DNA of 35,383 bases from an uncultured Pelagibacteraceae bacterium (GCA_902532645.1 CACAIU010000007.1:1-35383); one strand, 5' to 3'; positions 10,763 to 32,516 are shown, counted from the first letter of the stretch. Notes: generated from the letters alone by a model not told the origin. Program-made: numbers and translations.

Positions 10763-12258
10763 TATTTCTTCTTAAAGGTTTTGTAAATATGCCAAACTAC
10801 AATTAAAATTGTAGTTGCTAGGATGCATGCGGTTAATGTTCTGTCCCACAAAAATTCCCACGAACCATTACTTAATAACAAAGACCTTCTAAGATTTTCC
10901 TCCATCAATCCACCTAAAACAAAAGCTAATATCAAAGGTGGCATTGGAAAATCATATAATCTTAAAAAAGTTGCAACTACTGCAATCCCAATCATTAAAT
11001 AAATATCAAAATTATTAAATGACATTACGTAAATCCCTGTAACAGAGAAAAATAAAATAAGAGGAATTAAATAATTTTTAGGAACAGCAAGAATTCTAGC
11101 AATATAAGGAATAAGTGGTAAGTTTAATATAAGAAGAATTACCATTCCAATATACATAGACATAATTATTGACCAAAAAATCTCTGGATTAGTCATGTAA
11201 AGTCTAGGACCAGGCTGAACACCAAATCCTAAAAGTGCACCTAGCATTACCGCAGTTGTTCCACTTCCCGGAATTCCTAAAGTAAGCATTGGCACAAAAG
11301 AGCCTGAGCAAGCTGCATTATTTGCAGTTTCTGGTGCAGATAAACCATTTACACTACCTTTACCAAATTTTTCTTTTTCATCATCACTAACTACGTTTCG
11401 TTCCATTCCGTAAGCTAAAAAAGATGCAATTGTTGCACCAGCTCCAGGCAAAACACCAATTAAAAAACCAATTACTGATGATCTTGGAATTGTCTTATAC
11501 ATTTTTGTTCGTTCTTCTTTATTAATTTTAATTGAGCCTAATTCAGTTAAAGAAACTTGCTTAGCAGCACTAGTTGGATCATTTCTTTTTAAAATAATTG
11601 TTAATGCTTCACTCATTGCAAAAGTTGCCATCACAACTAGTACGAAACTAATTCCGTCAGTTAAGTTCATATTGTTAAATGTAAATCTTGTAATATCAGA
11701 CAAACTATCTTGGCCAACAGATGCCAACATCAAACCAAGCACTACCATCATCATTGCTTTTAAAAATTGTCCTTTAGACGAAAAAGCAGCAATCGCTGTT
11801 AAACCTAAAATCATTAAAGCAAAGTAATCTGGTGATCTAAAAGATAAACTTACTTTTGATAAACTTGGTGCCATAAATAATAAATAAATTGCAGATAATG
11901 TACCACCTGCAAATGAACTCCATGCTGCAATCGCTAAGGCTTTTCCTGCTTTACCCTGTTGTGCCATAGGATAACCATCAAATGAAGTTGCAACTGTTCC
12001 AGGGACACCGGGTGCATTTAATAATATAGAAGAAGTAGAACCACCAAATACTGCTCCATAATAAACACCAGCCATCAAAATTAATCCTGTTGCAGGATCA
12101 AAACCATAGGTAATTGGTATCATCAATGCGATAGCTGTCATTGGCCCAAGACCAGGAAGCATTCCAATTATTGTTCCAAAAAAACAACCAACCATAACCA
12201 TTAATATGTTCTGAAAAGTAAGTGCTGTTGTTAATCCAATTAATATTCCTTCAATCAT
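10759..12258 (-). CDS. tctA: Tripartite tricarboxylate transporter large membrane subunit
   Basis: GTIIGMLPGLGPMTAIALMIPITYG and VLPGAGATIASFLAYGMER motifs. Confidence 0.95.
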   Translation of the reverse strand: MIEGILIGLTTALTFQNILMVMVGCFFGTIIGMLPGLGPMTAIALMIPITYGFDPATGLILMAGVYYGAVFGGSTSSILLNAPGVPGTVATSFDGYPMAQQGKAGKALAIAAWSSFAGGTLSAIYLLFMAPSLSKVSLSFRSPDYFALMILGLTAIAAFSSKGQFLKAMMMVVLGLMLASVGQDSLSDITRFTFNNMNLTDGISFVLVVMATFAMSEALTIILKRNDPTSAAKQVSLTELGSIKINKEERTKMYKTIPRSSVIGFLIGVLPGAGATIASFLAYGMERNVVSDDEKEKFGKGSVNGLSAPETANNAACSGSFVPMLTLGIPGSGTTAVMLGALLGFGVQPGPRLYMTNPEIFWSIIMSMYIGMVILLILNLPLIPYIARILAVPKNYLIPLILFFSVTGIYVMSFNNFDIYLMIGIAVVATFLRLYDFPMPPLILAFVLGGLMEENLRRSLLLSNGSWEFLWDRTLTACILATTILIVVWHIYKTFKKKY

Positions 12259-26787: not shown

Positions 26788-26834
26788 TGGTAGCGGGAAG
26801 TGGGATCGAACCACTGACCTCGGGCTTATGAGTC
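26788..26834 (-). pseudogene. tRNA-Met(CAT) 3'-half remnant (displaced attachment site)
   Basis: 47 nt identical to 31593-31639 of the intact tRNA-Met, from CCA end through the anticodon loop; identity ends at 26834. Confidence 0.95.
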
Positions 26835-26934
26835 TATCGCCATGAACCCTGCTCACTCACTCTAAAGCAATTACTCCTGTAAATGCTCTCTTTCCTTTCT
26901 ATGCATATTGAATCAAATTAAAGAATCTTAGTCA

Positions 26935-26967
26935 AGAACCAATGTCATTGGAGCACTATTGGAGCAA
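26935..26967 (+). repeat. 33-bp direct repeat copy 1 (contains two ATTGGAGCA units 11 bp apart)
   Basis: AGAACCAATGTCATTGGAGCACTATTGGAGCAA identical to 27727-27759. Confidence 0.93.
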
Positions 26968-27023
26968 GAGTCAATTTAATTATATTGTAGATTGTAACTG
27001 AATTGTATTAAGTAATTTTAAAA

Positions 27024-27653
27024 TTATTTATCAAGCGATTTAAATCCTAATAAAAGCGCAGCAACTAACATTAATGAGCCTCCAACTTTATTAATCATCA
27101 AGCTTGAATTGCTCTTTATCATCATAGTGATTTTCGAAGCTGCAAAACCATAAAAAAAAAGAAATATTCCATCAATGAAAATATATGTAATTGATAAAAT
27201 TAAGCATTGAGTCCAGATATCACCATTTACAGATATAAATTGTGGAAAGAGAGCAGCAAAAAATAAGATTGCTTTAGGGTTTGATGCGGATGTTAAAAAA
27301 CCTTGTAAAAACAATTTTCTATAAATTTTTTTATTATTTGTTTTTTTATAATTGTTAGCATTTTCCTTTTTTTCAAAAATTAATTTTAAAGCGTTCCAAA
27401 CTAAATAAGTAACACCAATCCATTTTATGTAGATTAAGATGTTATTATCAAATGATGCTATCAATAACCCAATACCAGCTGTGGCTATTATCATTTGTAA
27501 AAGATTTGCTGACAAATCCCCTACTATTGTTGCAACTGAATTTTTAAGGCCATAAGTTGCGCTGTTGGATAACATTAATAATTGACTTGGCCCAGGTGTG
27601 CTCATAAGAGCTAAAACCGCAAAAATAAATAATACCCAGTTATCTAAAGTCAT
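27024..27653 (-). CDS. LysE/RhtB-family exporter
   Basis: LMSTPGPSQLLMLSNSATYGLKNSV; FLTSASNPKAILFFAALFPQFI. Confidence 0.92.
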   Translation of the reverse strand: MTLDNWVLFIFAVLALMSTPGPSQLLMLSNSATYGLKNSVATIVGDLSANLLQMIIATAGIGLLIASFDNNILIYIKWIGVTYLVWNALKLIFEKKENANNYKKTNNKKIYRKLFLQGFLTSASNPKAILFFAALFPQFISVNGDIWTQCLILSITYIFIDGIFLFFYGFAASKITMMIKSNSSLMINKVGGSLMLVAALLLGFKSLDK

Positions 27654-27726
27654 AATTTATTAGTTAAAAAAAATTTTATTAATTGATTAATAACAATATC
27701 AAATTCATAAATAAAGCAATTACTCG

Positions 27727-27759
27727 AGAACCAATGTCATTGGAGCACTATTGGAGCAA
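27727..27759 (+). repeat. 33-bp direct repeat copy 2
   Basis: Identical to 26935-26967; preceded by AAAGCAATTACTC (27713-27725), also present at 26864-26876. Confidence 0.93.
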
Positions 27760-27880
27760 ATATGTTTGGAAATGTAAAACATGATTTGGTCTGAATATAT
27801 AAAGATTAATTTACTAGTTGGTTGGTTCCAAAATAATTTTTAAAAATACTAATTTGTGTTATATTTTTAACGAAAAACAC

Positions 27881-28246
27881 ATGTTGCAAAAAGTAATAAA
27901 TTTTAAAGATAAGTTGGCTAAATTTTCCGAACACTGGTCTCCACGTGTTATTGCTGAAATGAATGATTACCAATTCAAGCTAGCAAAATTCAAAGATAAA
28001 TTTGTTTGGCACGACCATCAAGATACTGACGAAGTATTTCTTGTACTTAAAGGTTCAATGTCAATTGAATTGTCAGATCATACAGTGAAACTAAATGAAG
28101 GAGAAATGTTTGTGGTTCCCAAAGGAACAAAACATAGGCCATATGCCAAAGAAGAATGCCATGTCCTTCTTGTTGAACCCCGTGGTGTTGTAAACACCGG
28201 TGACAGCGGCGGTGAGTTGACTGCTCAAAATGATGTATGGGTTTAA
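27881..28246 (+). CDS. Cupin-domain protein
   Basis: VWHDHQDTDEVFLVLKGSMSIEL...LNEGEMFVVPKGTKHRPYA cupin motifs; ATG at 27881 preferred over alternative start 27818. Confidence 0.92.
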   Translation: MLQKVINFKDKLAKFSEHWSPRVIAEMNDYQFKLAKFKDKFVWHDHQDTDEVFLVLKGSMSIELSDHTVKLNEGEMFVVPKGTKHRPYAKEECHVLLVEPRGVVNTGDSGGELTAQNDVWV

Positions 28247-28300
28247 AATATCTTTAAGATATTAATTTGAGAAACAGTGCAAAACTTTTTCAAATAATTG

Positions 28301-28642
28301 TCAGCCAATCAAAATTTGATGCATAACACGTCCAGGCATAAGTGTAAAAAAGCCTGTTAGGATTAGAGCAAAAAAATATAAAGCGATCATTACTTGTTTG
28401 TGACGTTTAATATTACAAACTCTTACAAAGTAAATTCCAAGACCAAGTGAGAAAATTGTCCACAAACTTAATAAATGTATAGGACTATAAGCGCCCCATA
28501 ATTTAATTTCATGAATAAATAAAGAAGATATCGCTACAATCAGCATTAAGCCTACCCATACACGACCTAACAATTTATGAATGGCTCCACCTTTTTTCAT
28601 AGAAAGTTGTATGCCGCCTAAAATTATAGCAATCATTGCCAT
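28301..28642 (-). CDS. Small DUF2306-like membrane protein
   Basis: Hydrophobic ORF with KKGGAIHKLLGRVWVGLM; possible short in-frame N-terminal extension lacking ATG. Confidence 0.6.
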   Translation of the reverse strand: MAMIAIILGGIQLSMKKGGAIHKLLGRVWVGLMLIVAISSLFIHEIKLWGAYSPIHLLSLWTIFSLGLGIYFVRVCNIKRHKQVMIALYFFALILTGFFTLMPGRVMHQILIG

Positions 28643-28755
28643 AATAGCGTGAACTGGTATGGGTGATATATTTATTAAACTAGCAAGATAATTTTAGAGT
28701 AATTATTGCTAAGATCTAATGGTGGGAGCTAACGCCCCCACGCTTAATTTAGCTA

Positions 28756-30006
28756 TTAATCTAAGCTATAAATTGTAACTGATTTTTCTTTATCAACTTC
28801 GTTAGCACTTACAAATAAGTTCCTCTCAGGAATAGCAACTAAACCTTCAGGTCCAATGCCTGTTGGTAATATAGTAACTAATTCTGGGTTAGATAAATCA
28901 TTTGCTTTATAAACACCGATAGCATTTGCTCTTTCAGCACCAACAAAGATGTAACGCGTATCACCATATATTGCCACCTCAACCGATTCTGGTTCTACCC
29001 CTTTTTTCTCTGCACGATTTTCTGGCCAATAACCTGCTGAAGCAAGTGCTCTTTCATATGATGAACCTGACTCGTACACAACTGAGCCATCTTTGTTAAA
29101 GATTGTCCATCCACGGCTTCCACCACGCTTAGCTTGACCTGGCGCTTCATGTTTATAGTCCCCTTCATTTGCAGTAGCAAAATGATCATTACCAATCCAC
29201 TTAACTGCATCTGGCTCTCTTCTTACATTTTCAATGCTGTCAGACATATTTAACTTACCGTCTTTTTTATTATCGACACCCACAAGTGTTACAAGTCCTG
29301 CATCAAACTCTGAAATTACATTTCCATTTCGATCAATAACTGCCATCCAGTTATTCTCTTGCATCGTAACAACTATTTCACCTAAGTTATTAATGTCGAC
29401 AAACTCTGGCTCTGGATCGTTTGGAGCAATAGTTGAAAAACCAACTAAGTCTGCTTTGATAACACTATTATCTGCTAAATTAACGATTGCCACAAAGCCC
29501 CCTGGAAGTTGTGGAATTTTTTCGTCATTAATATCTTCGTTACGCTCATTTTCAATAGCGACTGCCACAAAAGTTCCATCTGGACTAACTGCAACAGAGT
29601 CTGGTTGTCCACCTAGTTCTACTTTTGCAACTTCTTTTTCTGAAGCAAGATCAATAACTAACAAGTGTCCACTTGGTTTTACGTAGTCTGGAGAAGTGTT
29701 AATACCAACATATGCTTTCCCATTTTTAATAGCAACACTAGTTGGCTCACCACCTAAGCTCATTGAGCCTAATGGCTTTGGGTTAGATGGATCAGTGATA
29801 TCAATCATCCCTAATGCATTTGCAGGGCTATCACTATATACTAGCTTCATACCGTCTGAGGTTGCAGCAATGATTTCTGCTGATGTTTCTTCTGCACCAG
29901 GATTGTTGACTGGTGTTCCAAAATTTCCAATTTCTTTAAAATCTGCATTTACTGTACTAACAAACGCAGTTGAGGCCAGTAAGACTGTTAAAATAAATTT
30001 AATCAT
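28756..30006 (-). CDS. Secreted beta-propeller / choice-of-anchor-I-like protein
   Basis: Signal peptide; SPDGTFVAVAIENERNED, LPGGFVAIVNL, EPDAVKWIGNDHFATANEGD, KGVEPESVEVA, GPEGLVAIPERNLFVSANEVD. Confidence 0.8.
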   Translation of the reverse strand: MIKFILTVLLASTAFVSTVNADFKEIGNFGTPVNNPGAEETSAEIIAATSDGMKLVYSDSPANALGMIDITDPSNPKPLGSMSLGGEPTSVAIKNGKAYVGINTSPDYVKPSGHLLVIDLASEKEVAKVELGGQPDSVAVSPDGTFVAVAIENERNEDINDEKIPQLPGGFVAIVNLADNSVIKADLVGFSTIAPNDPEPEFVDINNLGEIVVTMQENNWMAVIDRNGNVISEFDAGLVTLVGVDNKKDGKLNMSDSIENVRREPDAVKWIGNDHFATANEGDYKHEAPGQAKRGGSRGWTIFNKDGSVVYESGSSYERALASAGYWPENRAEKKGVEPESVEVAIYGDTRYIFVGAERANAIGVYKANDLSNPELVTILPTGIGPEGLVAIPERNLFVSANEVDKEKSVTIYSLD

Positions 30007-30198
30007 TGTAATTTTTCCTTTTTTTGATTCCTTAAGGAAATACTTAGATAAGATTAAAAATTTATAACATTTTAATTACAATTATATTTCATTCTAACTA
30101 CTGGAATTATTTTAAAAATTTAAATCAATAAAAAGTTAATTGTGAATTACTTTGTGGATTGTAACTGAATTGTAATATTATTTTAATGTATTGTAATA

Positions 30199-30732
30199 TT
30201 AATTGTTAAATTTAATCCTCGTTAAGGTTTCATCTCTTCTTATGTAGTGATGGTATAAAGCCGCTATGAAATGTAAAACAAAAGTATACAACAATAAATC
30301 ACCAGCAATCCCATGAAAATTGTGAGCAAGTTTTTCAAAATCACCGTTACTTTCAACAATATTAACTAATTCAACCCCAAAAAATAACACCTCTTTGCCC
30401 TCTATATTCATCAAAACATAACCTGTTATAGGTGCAGCAAGCATTCCAAAATAAAATATAAAAAATACAAGATTAGATAATCTATTTAAAAGCCTGCTTT
30501 TATTAATATTTTCTGGTTTTGGGTTTGACCACCTCCAAAACAATCTTAAAATAACTAAAATAAAAATAATTATGCCCAATGAATTATGAACTAACATTAA
30601 AAAGTCATAATACTTTTTTGGTGTATGCTCTGATAAATTCCCTAACAATAGTACAAACAACAAAATTCCAGCCATATACCAATGAAAAGTTTTTGAAATT
30701 AAGCCGTATTTTTTAATTGTGTTTCGAATCAC
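30199..30732 (-). CDS. Cytochrome b561-family membrane protein
   Basis: KTFHWYMAGILLFVLLLG; LVHNSLGIIIFILVILRLFWRWSNP; NFHGIAGDLLLYTFVLHFIAALYHHYI with paired His in TM segments. Confidence 0.9.
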   Translation of the reverse strand: MIRNTIKKYGLISKTFHWYMAGILLFVLLLGNLSEHTPKKYYDFLMLVHNSLGIIIFILVILRLFWRWSNPKPENINKSRLLNRLSNLVFFIFYFGMLAAPITGYVLMNIEGKEVLFFGVELVNIVESNGDFEKLAHNFHGIAGDLLLYTFVLHFIAALYHHYIRRDETLTRIKFNN

Positions 30733-30901
30733 AGAAATTCTTTAACAAAAAAAAATTACAATGAAGTTACACTCAATAATCAAAAAAAGAGTTTTAATAA
30801 TTCATTCATAGGAGTGTAAGAAATAGTTAATAAAACTTCCTTATAGAGTTTTAAATATTAATTATTAATCATTATTCTTTATAATTGTTAGCTCTCTATT
30901 G

Positions 30902-30933
30902 TTAGGAGCTTGGTAATATTATCAAGCTCCTAA
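30902..30933. terminator. Strong 11-bp hairpin in a divergent intergenic region
   Basis: TTAGGAGCTTG (30902-30912) / CAAGCTCCTAA (30923-30933), 10-nt loop. Confidence 0.5.
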
Positions 30934-31095
30934 TTTACTTTTCAAAAATATAAAATATTAATCAGCTTTTGGTGTCTCATTCTTTTCTAATTGTAATTTA
31001 TTTCGTTGATTAGATATTCTTTGTAACAAATTTGTAATTTAATTTTATAAAATTTAACATATAGTGTTTTTAAAACTAATTAATAAAAGAAAATT

Positions 31096-31512
31096 ATGCA
31101 AAGACTACACTTACATCTTGGAGTTAAAAACTTAAACGAAAGTATAAATTTTTACAAAAACTTATTTAAATCTGAACCAACAAAATTAAAAAAAGATTAT
31201 GCTCAATGGGTTTTAGATGATCCTAAAATCAATTTTGCAATATCTACAAGAGTGAAAACTTTAGGAGTGGATCATCTTGGAATACAGGTTGATAAAGTTG
31301 AAGAACTAAACGATATAAGAACTAATCTAGATAAAGCTGATATATCTACTTACTCAGATGGTGAAGTGACATGTTGTTATGCAAAGTCAGAGAAATCTTG
31401 GGTAAATGATCCAAACGGTGTTGCATGGGAAGCTTACCATACAATGGAAGATGCTGAGATTTATAATATAGAAGGCTCAAGATCAGATGCAGAGAAAAAA
31501 GGCTGTTGTTAA
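31096..31512 (+). CDS. ArsI/CadI-type vicinal-oxygen-chelate (glyoxalase-fold) metalloprotein
   Basis: LHLGVKNLNESINFYKNLF; VDHLGIQVD; TCCYAKSEKSWVNDPNGVAWEAY with vicinal Cys pair. Confidence 0.85.
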   Translation: MQRLHLHLGVKNLNESINFYKNLFKSEPTKLKKDYAQWVLDDPKINFAISTRVKTLGVDHLGIQVDKVEELNDIRTNLDKADISTYSDGEVTCCYAKSEKSWVNDPNGVAWEAYHTMEDAEIYNIEGSRSDAEKKGCC

Positions 31513-31527
31513 TAAAATTAATTAATA

Positions 31528-31547
31528 AATCTTAGTCAAGAACCAAT
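31528..31547 (+). repeat. Third, degenerate copy of the island repeat
   Basis: AATCTTAGTCAAGAACCAAT identical to 26924-26943, then TCATTG after one mismatch. Confidence 0.85.
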
Positions 31548-31592
31548 CTCATTGACACCTCAGAGACGCAAAACAGACTTATGCTTCTAGAA

Positions 31593-31669
31593 TGGTAGCG
31601 GGAAGTGGGATCGAACCACTGACCTCGGGCTTATGAGTCCCGCGCTCTAACCAACTGAGCTACCCCGCC
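31593..31669 (-). tRNA. tRNA-Met (CAT), intact, CCA encoded
   Basis: GGCGGGGTAGCTCAGTTGGTTAGAGCGCGGGACTCATAAGCCCGAGGTCAGTGGTTCGATCCCACTTCCCGCTACCA folds as a 77-nt cloverleaf; anticodon CAT. Confidence 0.97.
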
Positions 31670-31685
31670 ATTAAATTTATCTTGA

Positions 31686-31713
31686 TATATACTACTTTTA
31701 TTTTCTATTTCAA
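31686..31713 (-). promoter_or_regulatory. Putative promoter of intact tRNA-Met
   Basis: Minus-strand TTGAAA (31708-31713), 16-bp spacer, TATATA (31686-31691), about 16 bp from tRNA 5' end. Confidence 0.55.
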
Positions 31714-31751
31714 ACAAGATATTGCAAAATAAGATTAACATGAAATTCTTG

Positions 31752-31793
31752 GTGTGTCCTATGTGAGTCCAGTGTGTCCTAAAATTGAGTCCA
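31752..31793 (+). repeat. 10-bp-phased tandem repeat GTGTGTCCTA/TGTGAGTCCA/GTGTGTCCTA
   Basis: Three consecutive 10-bp units 31752-31781 plus a TGAGTCCA half unit; related copy at 32328-32347. Confidence 0.85.
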
Positions 31794-31810
31794 ATTTTTA
31801 GAGGGTGCGA

Positions 31811-32311
31811 TTACTTTAAATTTTTTAAAAATTTGTAAACTTTTTCTATTTGATCAACTGTAGCATCCTGCTTAATTCGATTAGCGAGATTGCTAATAAT
31901 AGATACATTATTTTTTGTATAACCTTTGTCAGGTATTAATCTATCTACAGAAGGCGAATTATCTGTTAAAGATTTTTTCACATTCAATTCAGAATATTTT
32001 ATTTCAATACCTAAAATAGGACAAACTTTGGGCCTGTTAGCAAATAATTCTTTAATGTCGTCTTTCGTAAGAGTGAATTTTATACCTTTTTGTTCGGCTC
32101 TTCTTTTAATTGTATAAAACAACTGATGATACGGATTCTTTCTGTATCGTAAAGACATCTCATTAGATTCACACTTAATACATTGAGAATATCTTTTTGA
32201 ACCATCCGCTGCTTTCCATCCACTAACTTTGGTTTTTCTAATTTTAAGTTTTCTGAACTCTTTGAATTTTTTATCTATCTTGCAAATTGTACATATTTTA
32301 GATTCTCGCAT
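31811..32311 (-). CDS. Putative HNH/treble-clef nuclease-like protein
   Basis: CTIC...CIKC cysteine pairs; CPILGIEI...SPSVDRLIPDKGYTKNNVSIISNLANRIK resembles small phage-associated HNH-like proteins. Confidence 0.65.
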   Translation of the reverse strand: MRESKICTICKIDKKFKEFRKLKIRKTKVSGWKAADGSKRYSQCIKCESNEMSLRYRKNPYHQLFYTIKRRAEQKGIKFTLTKDDIKELFANRPKVCPILGIEIKYSELNVKKSLTDNSPSVDRLIPDKGYTKNNVSIISNLANRIKQDATVDQIEKVYKFLKNLK

Positions 32312-32327
32312 TTACAAAATATTATCA

Positions 32328-32347
32328 GTGTGTCCTATGTGTGACCA
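32328..32347 (+). repeat. Second copy of the phased GTGTGTCCTA repeat
   Basis: GTGTGTCCTATGTG identical (14 nt) to 31752-31765. Confidence 0.85.
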
Positions 32348-32406
32348 GATTTAAGTTGATATTGAATTGAGATTGTATTTCAAGGATCTTGAACAATGGA
32401 CAAAGA

Positions 32407-32447
32407 GCTTATGAGTCCCGCGCTCTAACCAACTGAGCTACCCCGCC
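32407..32447 (-). pseudogene. tRNA-Met(CAT) 5'-half remnant
   Basis: 41 nt identical to 31629-31669 of the intact tRNA-Met, from the 5' end through the anticodon loop. Confidence 0.95.
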
Positions 32448-32462
32448 TTAATTGATAAATGG

Positions 32463-32490
32463 TTTATAATATAAATCTTTATTGTTTCAA
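32463..32490 (-). promoter_or_regulatory. Putative promoter reading into the tRNA-Met 5' half
   Basis: Minus-strand TTGAAA (32485-32490), 16-bp spacer, TATAAA (32463-32468), 15 bp from the tRNA 5' end. Confidence 0.55.
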
Positions 32491-32516
32491 TAAACTTTTT
32501 TAAATCAAACCCTAAA

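What the first reader, a model, noticed from the sequence alone, without database searches (positions are those of the whole stretch)
26788..32447. A tRNA-Met gene split into two distant halves with an intact copy between them
Seen directly: a 47-nt 3' half at 26788-26834, an intact tRNA-Met at 31593-31669 and a 41-nt 5' half at 32407-32447, all on the minus strand. The two halves add up to exactly one tRNA. Simple tRNA integration displaces only one half. Here both a 3' and a 5' half are displaced, which implies two events: one downstream element (about 4.8 kb, 26835-31592) bringing a 3' half and one upstream element (about 0.74 kb, 31670-32406) bringing a 5' half. No integrase ORF is in the window, so these look like cargo-only or satellite elements mobilised in trans. 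The concept resembles tRNA-targeted elements such as cyanobacterial tycheposons and tRNA-integrating pelagiphages, but the two-sided arrangement is unusual.
Basis: partly seen in the sequence, partly recalled or inferred. Interest (0 to 1): 0.85.

Follow-up and report, generated by a model that had tools for sequence, protein, structure and literature searches.

The report
Integrase-less cassettes on both tRNA-Met sides
In this SAR11-type ocean bacterium two small mobile DNA pieces, neither with a recombinase gene of its own, have inserted into the same tRNA gene from opposite sides, so the working gene is now built from the two invaders; relatives carry many similar, often single-gene, insertions at the same place.

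Summary
The three pieces are real. The intact tRNA-Met lies at 31593-31669(-). A 3' fragment (nt 31-77) lies at 26788-26834 and a 5' fragment (nt 1-41) at 32407-32447. The fragments overlap by 11 nt (GACTCATAAGC, anticodon loop), so they do not "add up to exactly one tRNA".

The clean empty site exists in a close relative (L066; 62/62 nt identical upstream of the 5' fragment, ~91% over 1-kb flanks). Other relatives have only a 3'-side insert (L050) or only a 5'-side insert (L035) at the same site. Among ~150 same-genus genomes with the gene, 11 carry a duplicated 5' fragment and 12 a duplicated 3' fragment; only the window has both.

Of 24 inserts delineated (0.5-5.4 kb), one encodes an integrase. 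They share end sequences with unrelated cargo: 18 of 23 integrase-less inserts have a perfect 7-nt repeat pair at 11-bp period, against ~5% of shuffles. The ends of the window's 737-bp HNH cassette match an integrase-bearing element at the same tRNA elsewhere (z about 20).

Best reading: two independent insertions of non-autonomous cassettes, integrase supplied in trans (inferred). Known relative: tRNA-targeted "additive" islands. Unusual: size, missing integrase, two-sidedness, promoter swap.

The parts
32448..32509 (-). native tRNA-Met upstream (promoter) region, now upstream of the displaced 5' fragment
   Evidence: 62/62 nt identical to the region upstream of the single intact tRNA-Met in empty-site relative L066; -35/-10-like TTGAAA..TATAAA read by eye; the consensus scan did not list it
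32407..32447 (-). displaced native 5' fragment, tRNA nt 1-41
   Evidence: exact match; lies next to the 69-aa gene as in empty-site relatives
31670..32406 (-). body of the 5'-side cassette (737 bp, integrase-less)
   Evidence: bounded by the two 5' copies of the tRNA; absent from L066, L048, L088
32326..32347 (-). left arm-like repeat pair GGTCACACATAGGACACAC
   Evidence: TGGTCACACATAGGACACA matches TGGGCACACATAGGGCACA just before the integrase gene of L118
31811..32311 (-). cargo gene: 166-aa HNH / endonuclease VII-like protein
   Evidence: phrog_3322 endonuclease E=4e-31; 30-39% identity to endonucleases of marine and other phages
31751..31792 (-). right arm-like repeats GGACTCAATTTTAGGACACACTGGACTCACATAGGACACACC
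   Evidence: aligns over ~57 bp with the right end of integrase-bearing element L118, z about 21 over shuffles
31670..31731 (-). element-borne upstream (promoter-like) region of the intact tRNA
   Evidence: TCTTGTTTGAAA..AGTAGTATA block shared with the same position of 5'-side cassettes L033, L035, L036, L037, L040; differs from the native region
31593..31669 (-). intact tRNA-Met(CAT), inferred chimera: 5' half from the upstream cassette, 3' half from the downstream element
   Evidence: ARAGORN and Rfam RF00005 E=3.7e-12; both outer flanks are element-type
31586..31592 (-). TTCTAGA, hallmark of the tRNA-proximal end of 3'-side elements
   Evidence: TTCTAGA-like flank in 12 distinct contexts, 11 of them with a displaced 3' fragment; 0 of 58 other contexts
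26835..31592 (-). 3'-side composite element (4758 bp, integrase-less)
   Evidence: bounded by two 3' copies of the tRNA; absent from L066, L048, L088
31532..31571 (-). left arm-like repeats of the 3'-side element (GCGTCTCTGAGGTGTC class)
   Evidence: direct-repeat family D2; same class at the left end of L055 and L151
31096..31512 (+). cargo: glyoxalase-like gene
   Evidence: PF00903 just below cut-off; 95.7% identical copy with LysE between two 3' fragments in L150
30199..30732 (-). cargo: cytochrome b561 gene
   Evidence: PF01292
28756..30006 (-). cargo: NHL / choice-of-anchor I protein gene
   Evidence: PF22494; stand-alone ~1.65-kb 5'-side cassette at tRNA-Gly(GCC) in L143-L147
28301..28642 (-). 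cargo: DUF2306 membrane protein gene
   Evidence: PF10067
27818..28246 (+). cargo: cupin gene
   Evidence: PF07883
27720..27759 (-). internal left arm of the LysE cassette, relic of a once separate element
   Evidence: same sequence as the left end of LysE cassettes L056/L148
27024..27653 (-). cargo: LysE-type transporter gene
   Evidence: PF01810; 98-99.5% identical copies in four other Pelagibacteraceae genomes, all near tRNA-Met
26928..26967 (-). right arm-like repeats TTGCTCCAATAGTGCTCCAATGA
   Evidence: direct-repeat family D2; class shared with L050, L051, L054, L056
26835..26934 (-). conserved right end of 3'-side elements
   Evidence: 84-99 of 100 nt identical to L051, L054, L055, L056, L058, which carry other cargo except L056
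26788..26834 (-). displaced native 3' fragment, tRNA nt 31-77
   Evidence: exact match; next to the phosphoribosyltransferase gene as in L066

Best explanation
Two independent site-specific insertions hit one tRNA-Met gene. One non-autonomous cassette (737 bp, one HNH gene) came in on the 5' side and brought its own copy of the tRNA 5' half plus an upstream promoter region. A second element (4.8 kb, six genes, itself a fusion of smaller cassettes) came in on the 3' side and brought its own 3' half with a TTCTAGA trailer. The native gene was pushed apart, and the working tRNA-Met is a chimera of the two elements' halves. The likely enzyme is a tyrosine integrase acting near the anticodon loop (nt 33-41), supplied in trans by integrase-bearing elements (one is satellite-like, with a primase/ATPase and a terminase small subunit) whose arm-like repeats match those of the cassettes. 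Shown by sequence: the empty site, single-insertion intermediates, fragment boundaries, shared ends with different cargo, end matches between integrase-less and integrase-bearing elements. Inferred: integrase identity and trans action, the crossover position, the native tRNA promoter driving cargo in 5'-side cassettes, and packaging by a helper phage.
For: Empty site in L066, L048, L088; 3'-only L050 and 5'-only L035 at the same locus. 5' duplications in 11 of 153 and 3' duplications in 12 of 149 genomes with the gene, with tandem 3' inserts in L052, L053 and L058. Every 3' fragment bounding an insert starts at nt 24-33 and every 5' one ends at nt 41-63. TTCTAGA flank tied to 3'-side inserts, 0 of 58 elsewhere. 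Perfect 7-nt pairs at 11-bp period in 18 of 23 integrase-less inserts vs ~5% in shuffles and 4.4% of control windows. Last 100 nt of the downstream element 84-99% identical to five other 3'-side inserts. Integrase-bearing 5'-side elements at the same tRNA: L038, L118, L124, L126. Window vs L118 right end z about 21; L033 vs L038 left end z 20; L039 vs L118 left end z 15.5. Terminase small subunit and primase-like gene in L038.
Against: No excision or circular form could be tested. No integrase matching the GCTCCA, GGTCCA or GCGTC classes was found, and the one 3'-side integrase element examined (G082) has unrelated ends. Five scans of viral contigs found no such element or close integrase. The genomes are incomplete, so an unassembled integrase elsewhere cannot be excluded. 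The window's own repeat pairs are imperfect and were not counted among the 18. Some 5'-side inserts (L034) lack the shared arms and promoter block. The repeat test was run after the motif was seen by eye, and several inserts are related, so the counts are not fully independent.
Confidence: 0.75

Rival explanations
1. One event: a single 5.6-kb element carrying a complete tRNA-Met inserted at an 11-bp core and split the native gene, as in tRNA-dependent lysogeny of mycobacteriophages.
For: The fragments overlap by exactly 11 nt, as a short common core would leave; an intact tRNA lies inside the block; the mechanism exists (PMC10865867).
Against: Each side of the intact tRNA carries the end signature of an element type that occurs alone in other genomes: TTCTAGA and GCGTC arms on the 3' side, GGACACA arms and promoter block on the 5' side. 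Single-side relatives exist at the same locus. No integrase in the block.
Confidence: 0.12
2. Gene flow by homologous recombination in the conserved tRNA and flanking genes, with tRNA fragments as passive relics, rather than site-specific integration.
For: SAR11 populations recombine (established knowledge); cassettes appear to have swapped arms or fused, e.g. the LysE cassette with GCTCCA arms in L148 and GCGTC arms in L151.
Against: Origin of the fragments with recurring boundaries and arm repeats needs site-specific integration; empty and filled sites differ exactly at the tRNA. Recombination may still spread or remodel inserted cassettes.
Confidence: 0.1
3. HNH-endonuclease homing: the cargo nuclease cuts the tRNA gene and copies itself in.
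For: The 5'-side cassette encodes a phage-type HNH protein.
Against: Other 5'-side cassettes with the same architecture carry a protease or unrelated proteins of unknown function instead; the ends match integrase-bearing elements.
Confidence: 0.02
4. Assembly or amplification artefact, or ordinary segmental duplication.
For: The genome is a fragmented draft (58 contigs, 70% complete) and named relatives are draft assemblies of uncultured cells.
Against: The same kinds of fragment boundaries and end sequences recur in more than 20 separately assembled genomes with different cargo; only the tRNA piece is duplicated.
Confidence: 0.01

Closest known systems
tRNA-targeted genomic islands of tyrosine integrases (Islander set, PMC4383910)
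   Same: Regenerated tRNA plus displaced fragment marking the ends, correct orientation, anticodon-loop region as one of the known crossover sites; 5' fragments known but rare there (159 vs 3760 with 3' fragments)
   Different: Islander requires an integrase and at least 2 kb; most inserts here have no integrase and many are 0.5-2 kb; 5' and 3' types are about equally common at this gene; the window has both
Additive flexible genomic islands / tRNA gene cassettes of marine bacteria (Methylophilaceae PMC10872708, Actinomarinales PMC7771536, Alteromonas PMC4119200)
   Same: Small cassettes accumulating at a tRNA with repeated tRNA fragments; 330 bp to 42 kb in Methylophilaceae
   Different: Two-sided use of one tRNA, promoter-carrying 5'-side cassettes, paired 11-bp-period repeats, matching integrase-bearing relatives and cargo shared between tRNA-Met and tRNA-Gly are not in the passages read
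Tycheposons (as described in PMC10872708; primary paper not held)
   Same: tRNA targets including tRNA-Met, cargo genes in streamlined marine bacteria
   Different: Defined there as 4-200 kb with a tyrosine recombinase; none here in cis
tRNA-dependent lysogeny (PMC10865867)
   Same: Short shared core in a tRNA gene; element-borne tRNA sequence rescues function
   Different: There one phage carries a whole tRNA and an integrase; here two half-gene replacements without integrase
Integron cassettes and CALINs
   Same: Works like them: mostly few-gene units, integrase in trans, insertion behind a resident promoter
   Different: tRNA halves and paired arm-like repeats at the ends; no integrase of any tyrosine type nearby; attC sites not searched

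Membership tests
tRNA-targeted genomic island (tyrosine integrase) | intact tRNA plus co-oriented fragment on the correct side | tested here: met
   5' fragment upstream, 3' fragment downstream, same strand
tRNA-targeted genomic island (tyrosine integrase) | empty site in relatives | tested here: met
   L066, L048, L088
tRNA-targeted genomic island (tyrosine integrase) | integrase gene inside the element | tested here: not met
   none in the window by PF00589 search of the own genome
tRNA-targeted genomic island (tyrosine integrase) | excision to a circle with attP | not testable with these tools
   needs reads or PCR
Additive flexible genomic island | presence/absence of cassettes at a tRNA target with repeated tRNA fragments | tested here: met
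Tycheposon | tyrosine recombinase in the element | tested here: not met
Tycheposon | size 4-200 kb | tested here: inconclusive
   5'-side cassette 0.78 kb fails, 3'-side element 4.8 kb passes
tRNA-dependent lysogeny | one element carries a whole tRNA and splits the host gene at a ~10-bp core | tested here: inconclusive
   11-nt overlap fits, but single-side relatives and side-specific flanks favour two elements
Phage satellite (PICI/PICMI/VEIME type) | integrase, replication and packaging genes | tested here: not met
   none in the window elements by annotation; L038 at the same tRNA in a relative has all three kinds
Integron cassette array | attC sites and IntI | not tested
   no attC search was run

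The most novel reading that the evidence does not exclude
Pelagibacter has a dispersed, integron-like gene-capture system: minimal cassettes (often one gene between arm-like repeats and half a tRNA) move in trans on satellite integrases into tRNA genes. 5'-side cassettes swap promoters, giving the tRNA an element-borne promoter and taking the resident tRNA promoter for their own gene; cargo moves between tRNA-Met and tRNA-Gly sites.
Probability: 0.4. Interest if true: 0.8.

Novelty: new variant of a known kind. Interest (0 to 1): 0.62.

Why it matters
SAR11 genomes are streamlined yet have large pangenomes, and how single genes enter them is largely unclear. A family of small, integrase-less cassettes at an apparently single-copy tRNA gene, with matching integrase-bearing elements in other genomes, gives a concrete and testable route. 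Island finders that demand an integrase and at least 2 kb would miss most of it. The chimeric tRNA also shows that both halves of a translation gene can be replaced by mobile DNA without changing its sequence.

Tried and rejected
Viral-contig scans for the tRNA 5' half, the 3' half plus TTCTAGA, two conserved end sequences and the L118 integrase found nothing. The HNH gene was found in no other of 300 genus genomes, so its own history could not be traced. HNH homing, artefact and segmental duplication were considered and rejected (see rivals). A defence role for cargo was tested with PADLOC: only partial or weak matches, to protease and HNH domains. Split or trans-spliced tRNA was rejected because an intact copy exists. 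The consensus promoter scan did not list either tRNA promoter, so promoter statements rest on alignment and reading by eye. The primary tycheposon and VEIME papers are not held, so comparison with them is second-hand.

Full report
What is there. The window is a whole 35-kb contig (C7) of an 880-kb draft genome of 58 contigs, 70% complete. The four close matches to its LysE gene in named genomes are uncultured Pelagibacteraceae. On the minus strand lie a 3' tRNA-Met fragment (26788-26834, nt 31-77), the intact gene (31593-31669) and a 5' fragment (32407-32447, nt 1-41), all exact copies. The fragments share 11 nt, GACTCATAAGC, in the anticodon loop.

Empty site and intermediates. In L066 the order is DMGDH, 69-aa gene, one intact tRNA-Met, phosphoribosyltransferase, IMPDH, with nothing inserted. 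The 62 nt upstream of its tRNA are identical to those upstream of the window's 5' fragment, and the 1-kb flanks are 90.6% and 91.5% identical. L048 and L088 are also empty. L050 has only a 3'-side insert at this locus and L035 only a 5'-side insert. Both fragments in the window are thus the native gene, pushed apart by insertions on each side.

How common. In a sample of 201 same-genus genomes the 5' part of the gene was found in 153, twice in 11; the 3' part in 149, more than once in 12. Only the window's genome has both, against about 0.9 expected if independent. Ten 5'-side and fourteen 3'-side inserts were delineated, with bodies of 498 to 5409 bp and usually one to six ORFs. Only one of these 24, L038, was found to encode an integrase; L038 also has a primase/ATPase-like gene and a terminase small subunit, so it looks like a phage satellite. 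Three 3'-side cases are tandem (L052, L053, L058).

End structure. Every displaced 3' fragment that bounds an insert starts at nt 24-33 and every 5' one ends at nt 41-63, so one zone, nt 33-41, is shared by all. 3'-side inserts begin with a TTCTAGA-like trailer after CCA; this flank is absent from 58 other tRNA-Met contexts, and 11 of the 12 contexts that have it carry a displaced 3' fragment. Most 5'-side inserts end with a promoter-like block that differs from the native one. Near the left end, 18 of 23 integrase-less inserts have a perfect 7-nt direct repeat at exactly 11-bp period, recurring at the right end, against about 5% of shuffles and 4.4% of control windows. Motif classes differ (GCTCCA, GACACA, GCGTC, GGTCCA, GATCACA). 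This is what integrase arm sites would look like, but binding has not been tested. The test followed inspection by eye and some inserts are related.

Integrase partners. A search with the L038 integrase found relatives in 15 of 399 genus genomes. Three more, L118, L124 and L126, sit in 5'-side inserts at tRNA-Met, and one (L128, genome G082) lies next to a 3' fragment. Paired repeats of the same layout lie next to these integrase genes. The right end of the window's HNH cassette aligns with L118's right end over about 57 bp (z about 21); the left ends of integrase-less L033 and L039 match L038 and L118 (z 20 and 15.5). Integrase-less and integrase-bearing elements thus share ends, the main support for action in trans. 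No partner was found for the 3'-side classes.

Cargo and cassette behaviour. The 5'-side cassette holds one HNH/endonuclease VII-like gene of a type found in phages. The downstream element holds glyoxalase-like, cytochrome b561, NHL-type, DUF2306, cupin and LysE genes. Its last 100 nt are 84-99% identical to five other 3'-side inserts. LysE occurs 98-99.5% identical in four other genomes near tRNA-Met: alone in L148 and L151, with the glyoxalase gene in L150, and as an inner relic in L149. The NHL gene is a stand-alone 5'-side cassette at tRNA-Gly(GCC) in five genomes. The window's 4.8 kb is therefore a mosaic, and an internal arm at 27720-27759 marks an old cassette boundary.

Mechanism. The most likely course is two separate integrations near the anticodon loop. 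Because the crossover lies mid-gene, an element must replace either the 3' half or the 5' half plus promoter; both kinds exist, and the window has one of each. The working tRNA-Met is then element-derived on both outer sides; within the identical tRNA letters the join cannot be placed. In most 5'-side cassettes, the window's included, the first gene starts 71-96 nt after the displaced fragment and points away from it, which suggests that the resident tRNA promoter drives the cargo; this is inference.

Rivals and novelty. The single-event model (tRNA-dependent lysogeny, PMC10865867) explains the 11-nt core, but not the side-specific end signatures or the single-side relatives. Homologous recombination may spread and remodel cassettes. 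The general idea of tRNA cassettes in marine bacteria is known (PMC10872708, PMC7771536, PMC4119200), and 5' fragments are known but rare (159 vs 3760; PMC4383910). Searches of the held literature found no description for SAR11 tRNA-Met, but the primary tycheposon and VEIME papers are not held. I file it as a new variant of a known kind.

Noticed in passing
L008, L039, L049, L052, L053 (three genes): Different small predicted secreted proteins share an almost identical leader MKKLLGIVVLGLLW, conserved at the DNA level (ATGAAAAAACTTTTAGGGATCGTGGTTCTGGG...), mostly in cassettes with GACACA repeats; the leader may be a shared recombining module.
   Followed up: partly
L143-L147: NHL-type gene as a stand-alone 5'-side cassette at tRNA-Gly(GCC) with the same layout of fragment, repeats and promoter.
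   Followed up: yes
L125, L130: Integrase-bearing 5'-side elements at tRNA-Gly(GCC), with paired repeats before the integrase gene.
   Followed up: partly
L123, L127, L129, L131, L121: Integrase genes preceded by 3' fragments of other tRNAs (another CAT tRNA; apparently tRNA-Asn in L121), suggesting several SAR11 tRNA genes are targets.
   Followed up: no
L033 and L050: Related trypsin-like proteases (49% identity) are cargo of a 5'-side and of a 3'-side cassette; both resemble the protease part of a PADLOC RT-protease model.
   Followed up: partly
L128:9012-9056 and 12165-12209 (genome G082): Two oppositely oriented tRNA-Met 3' fragments with the same upstream end sequence flank an integrase region, suggesting an inversion.
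   Followed up: no
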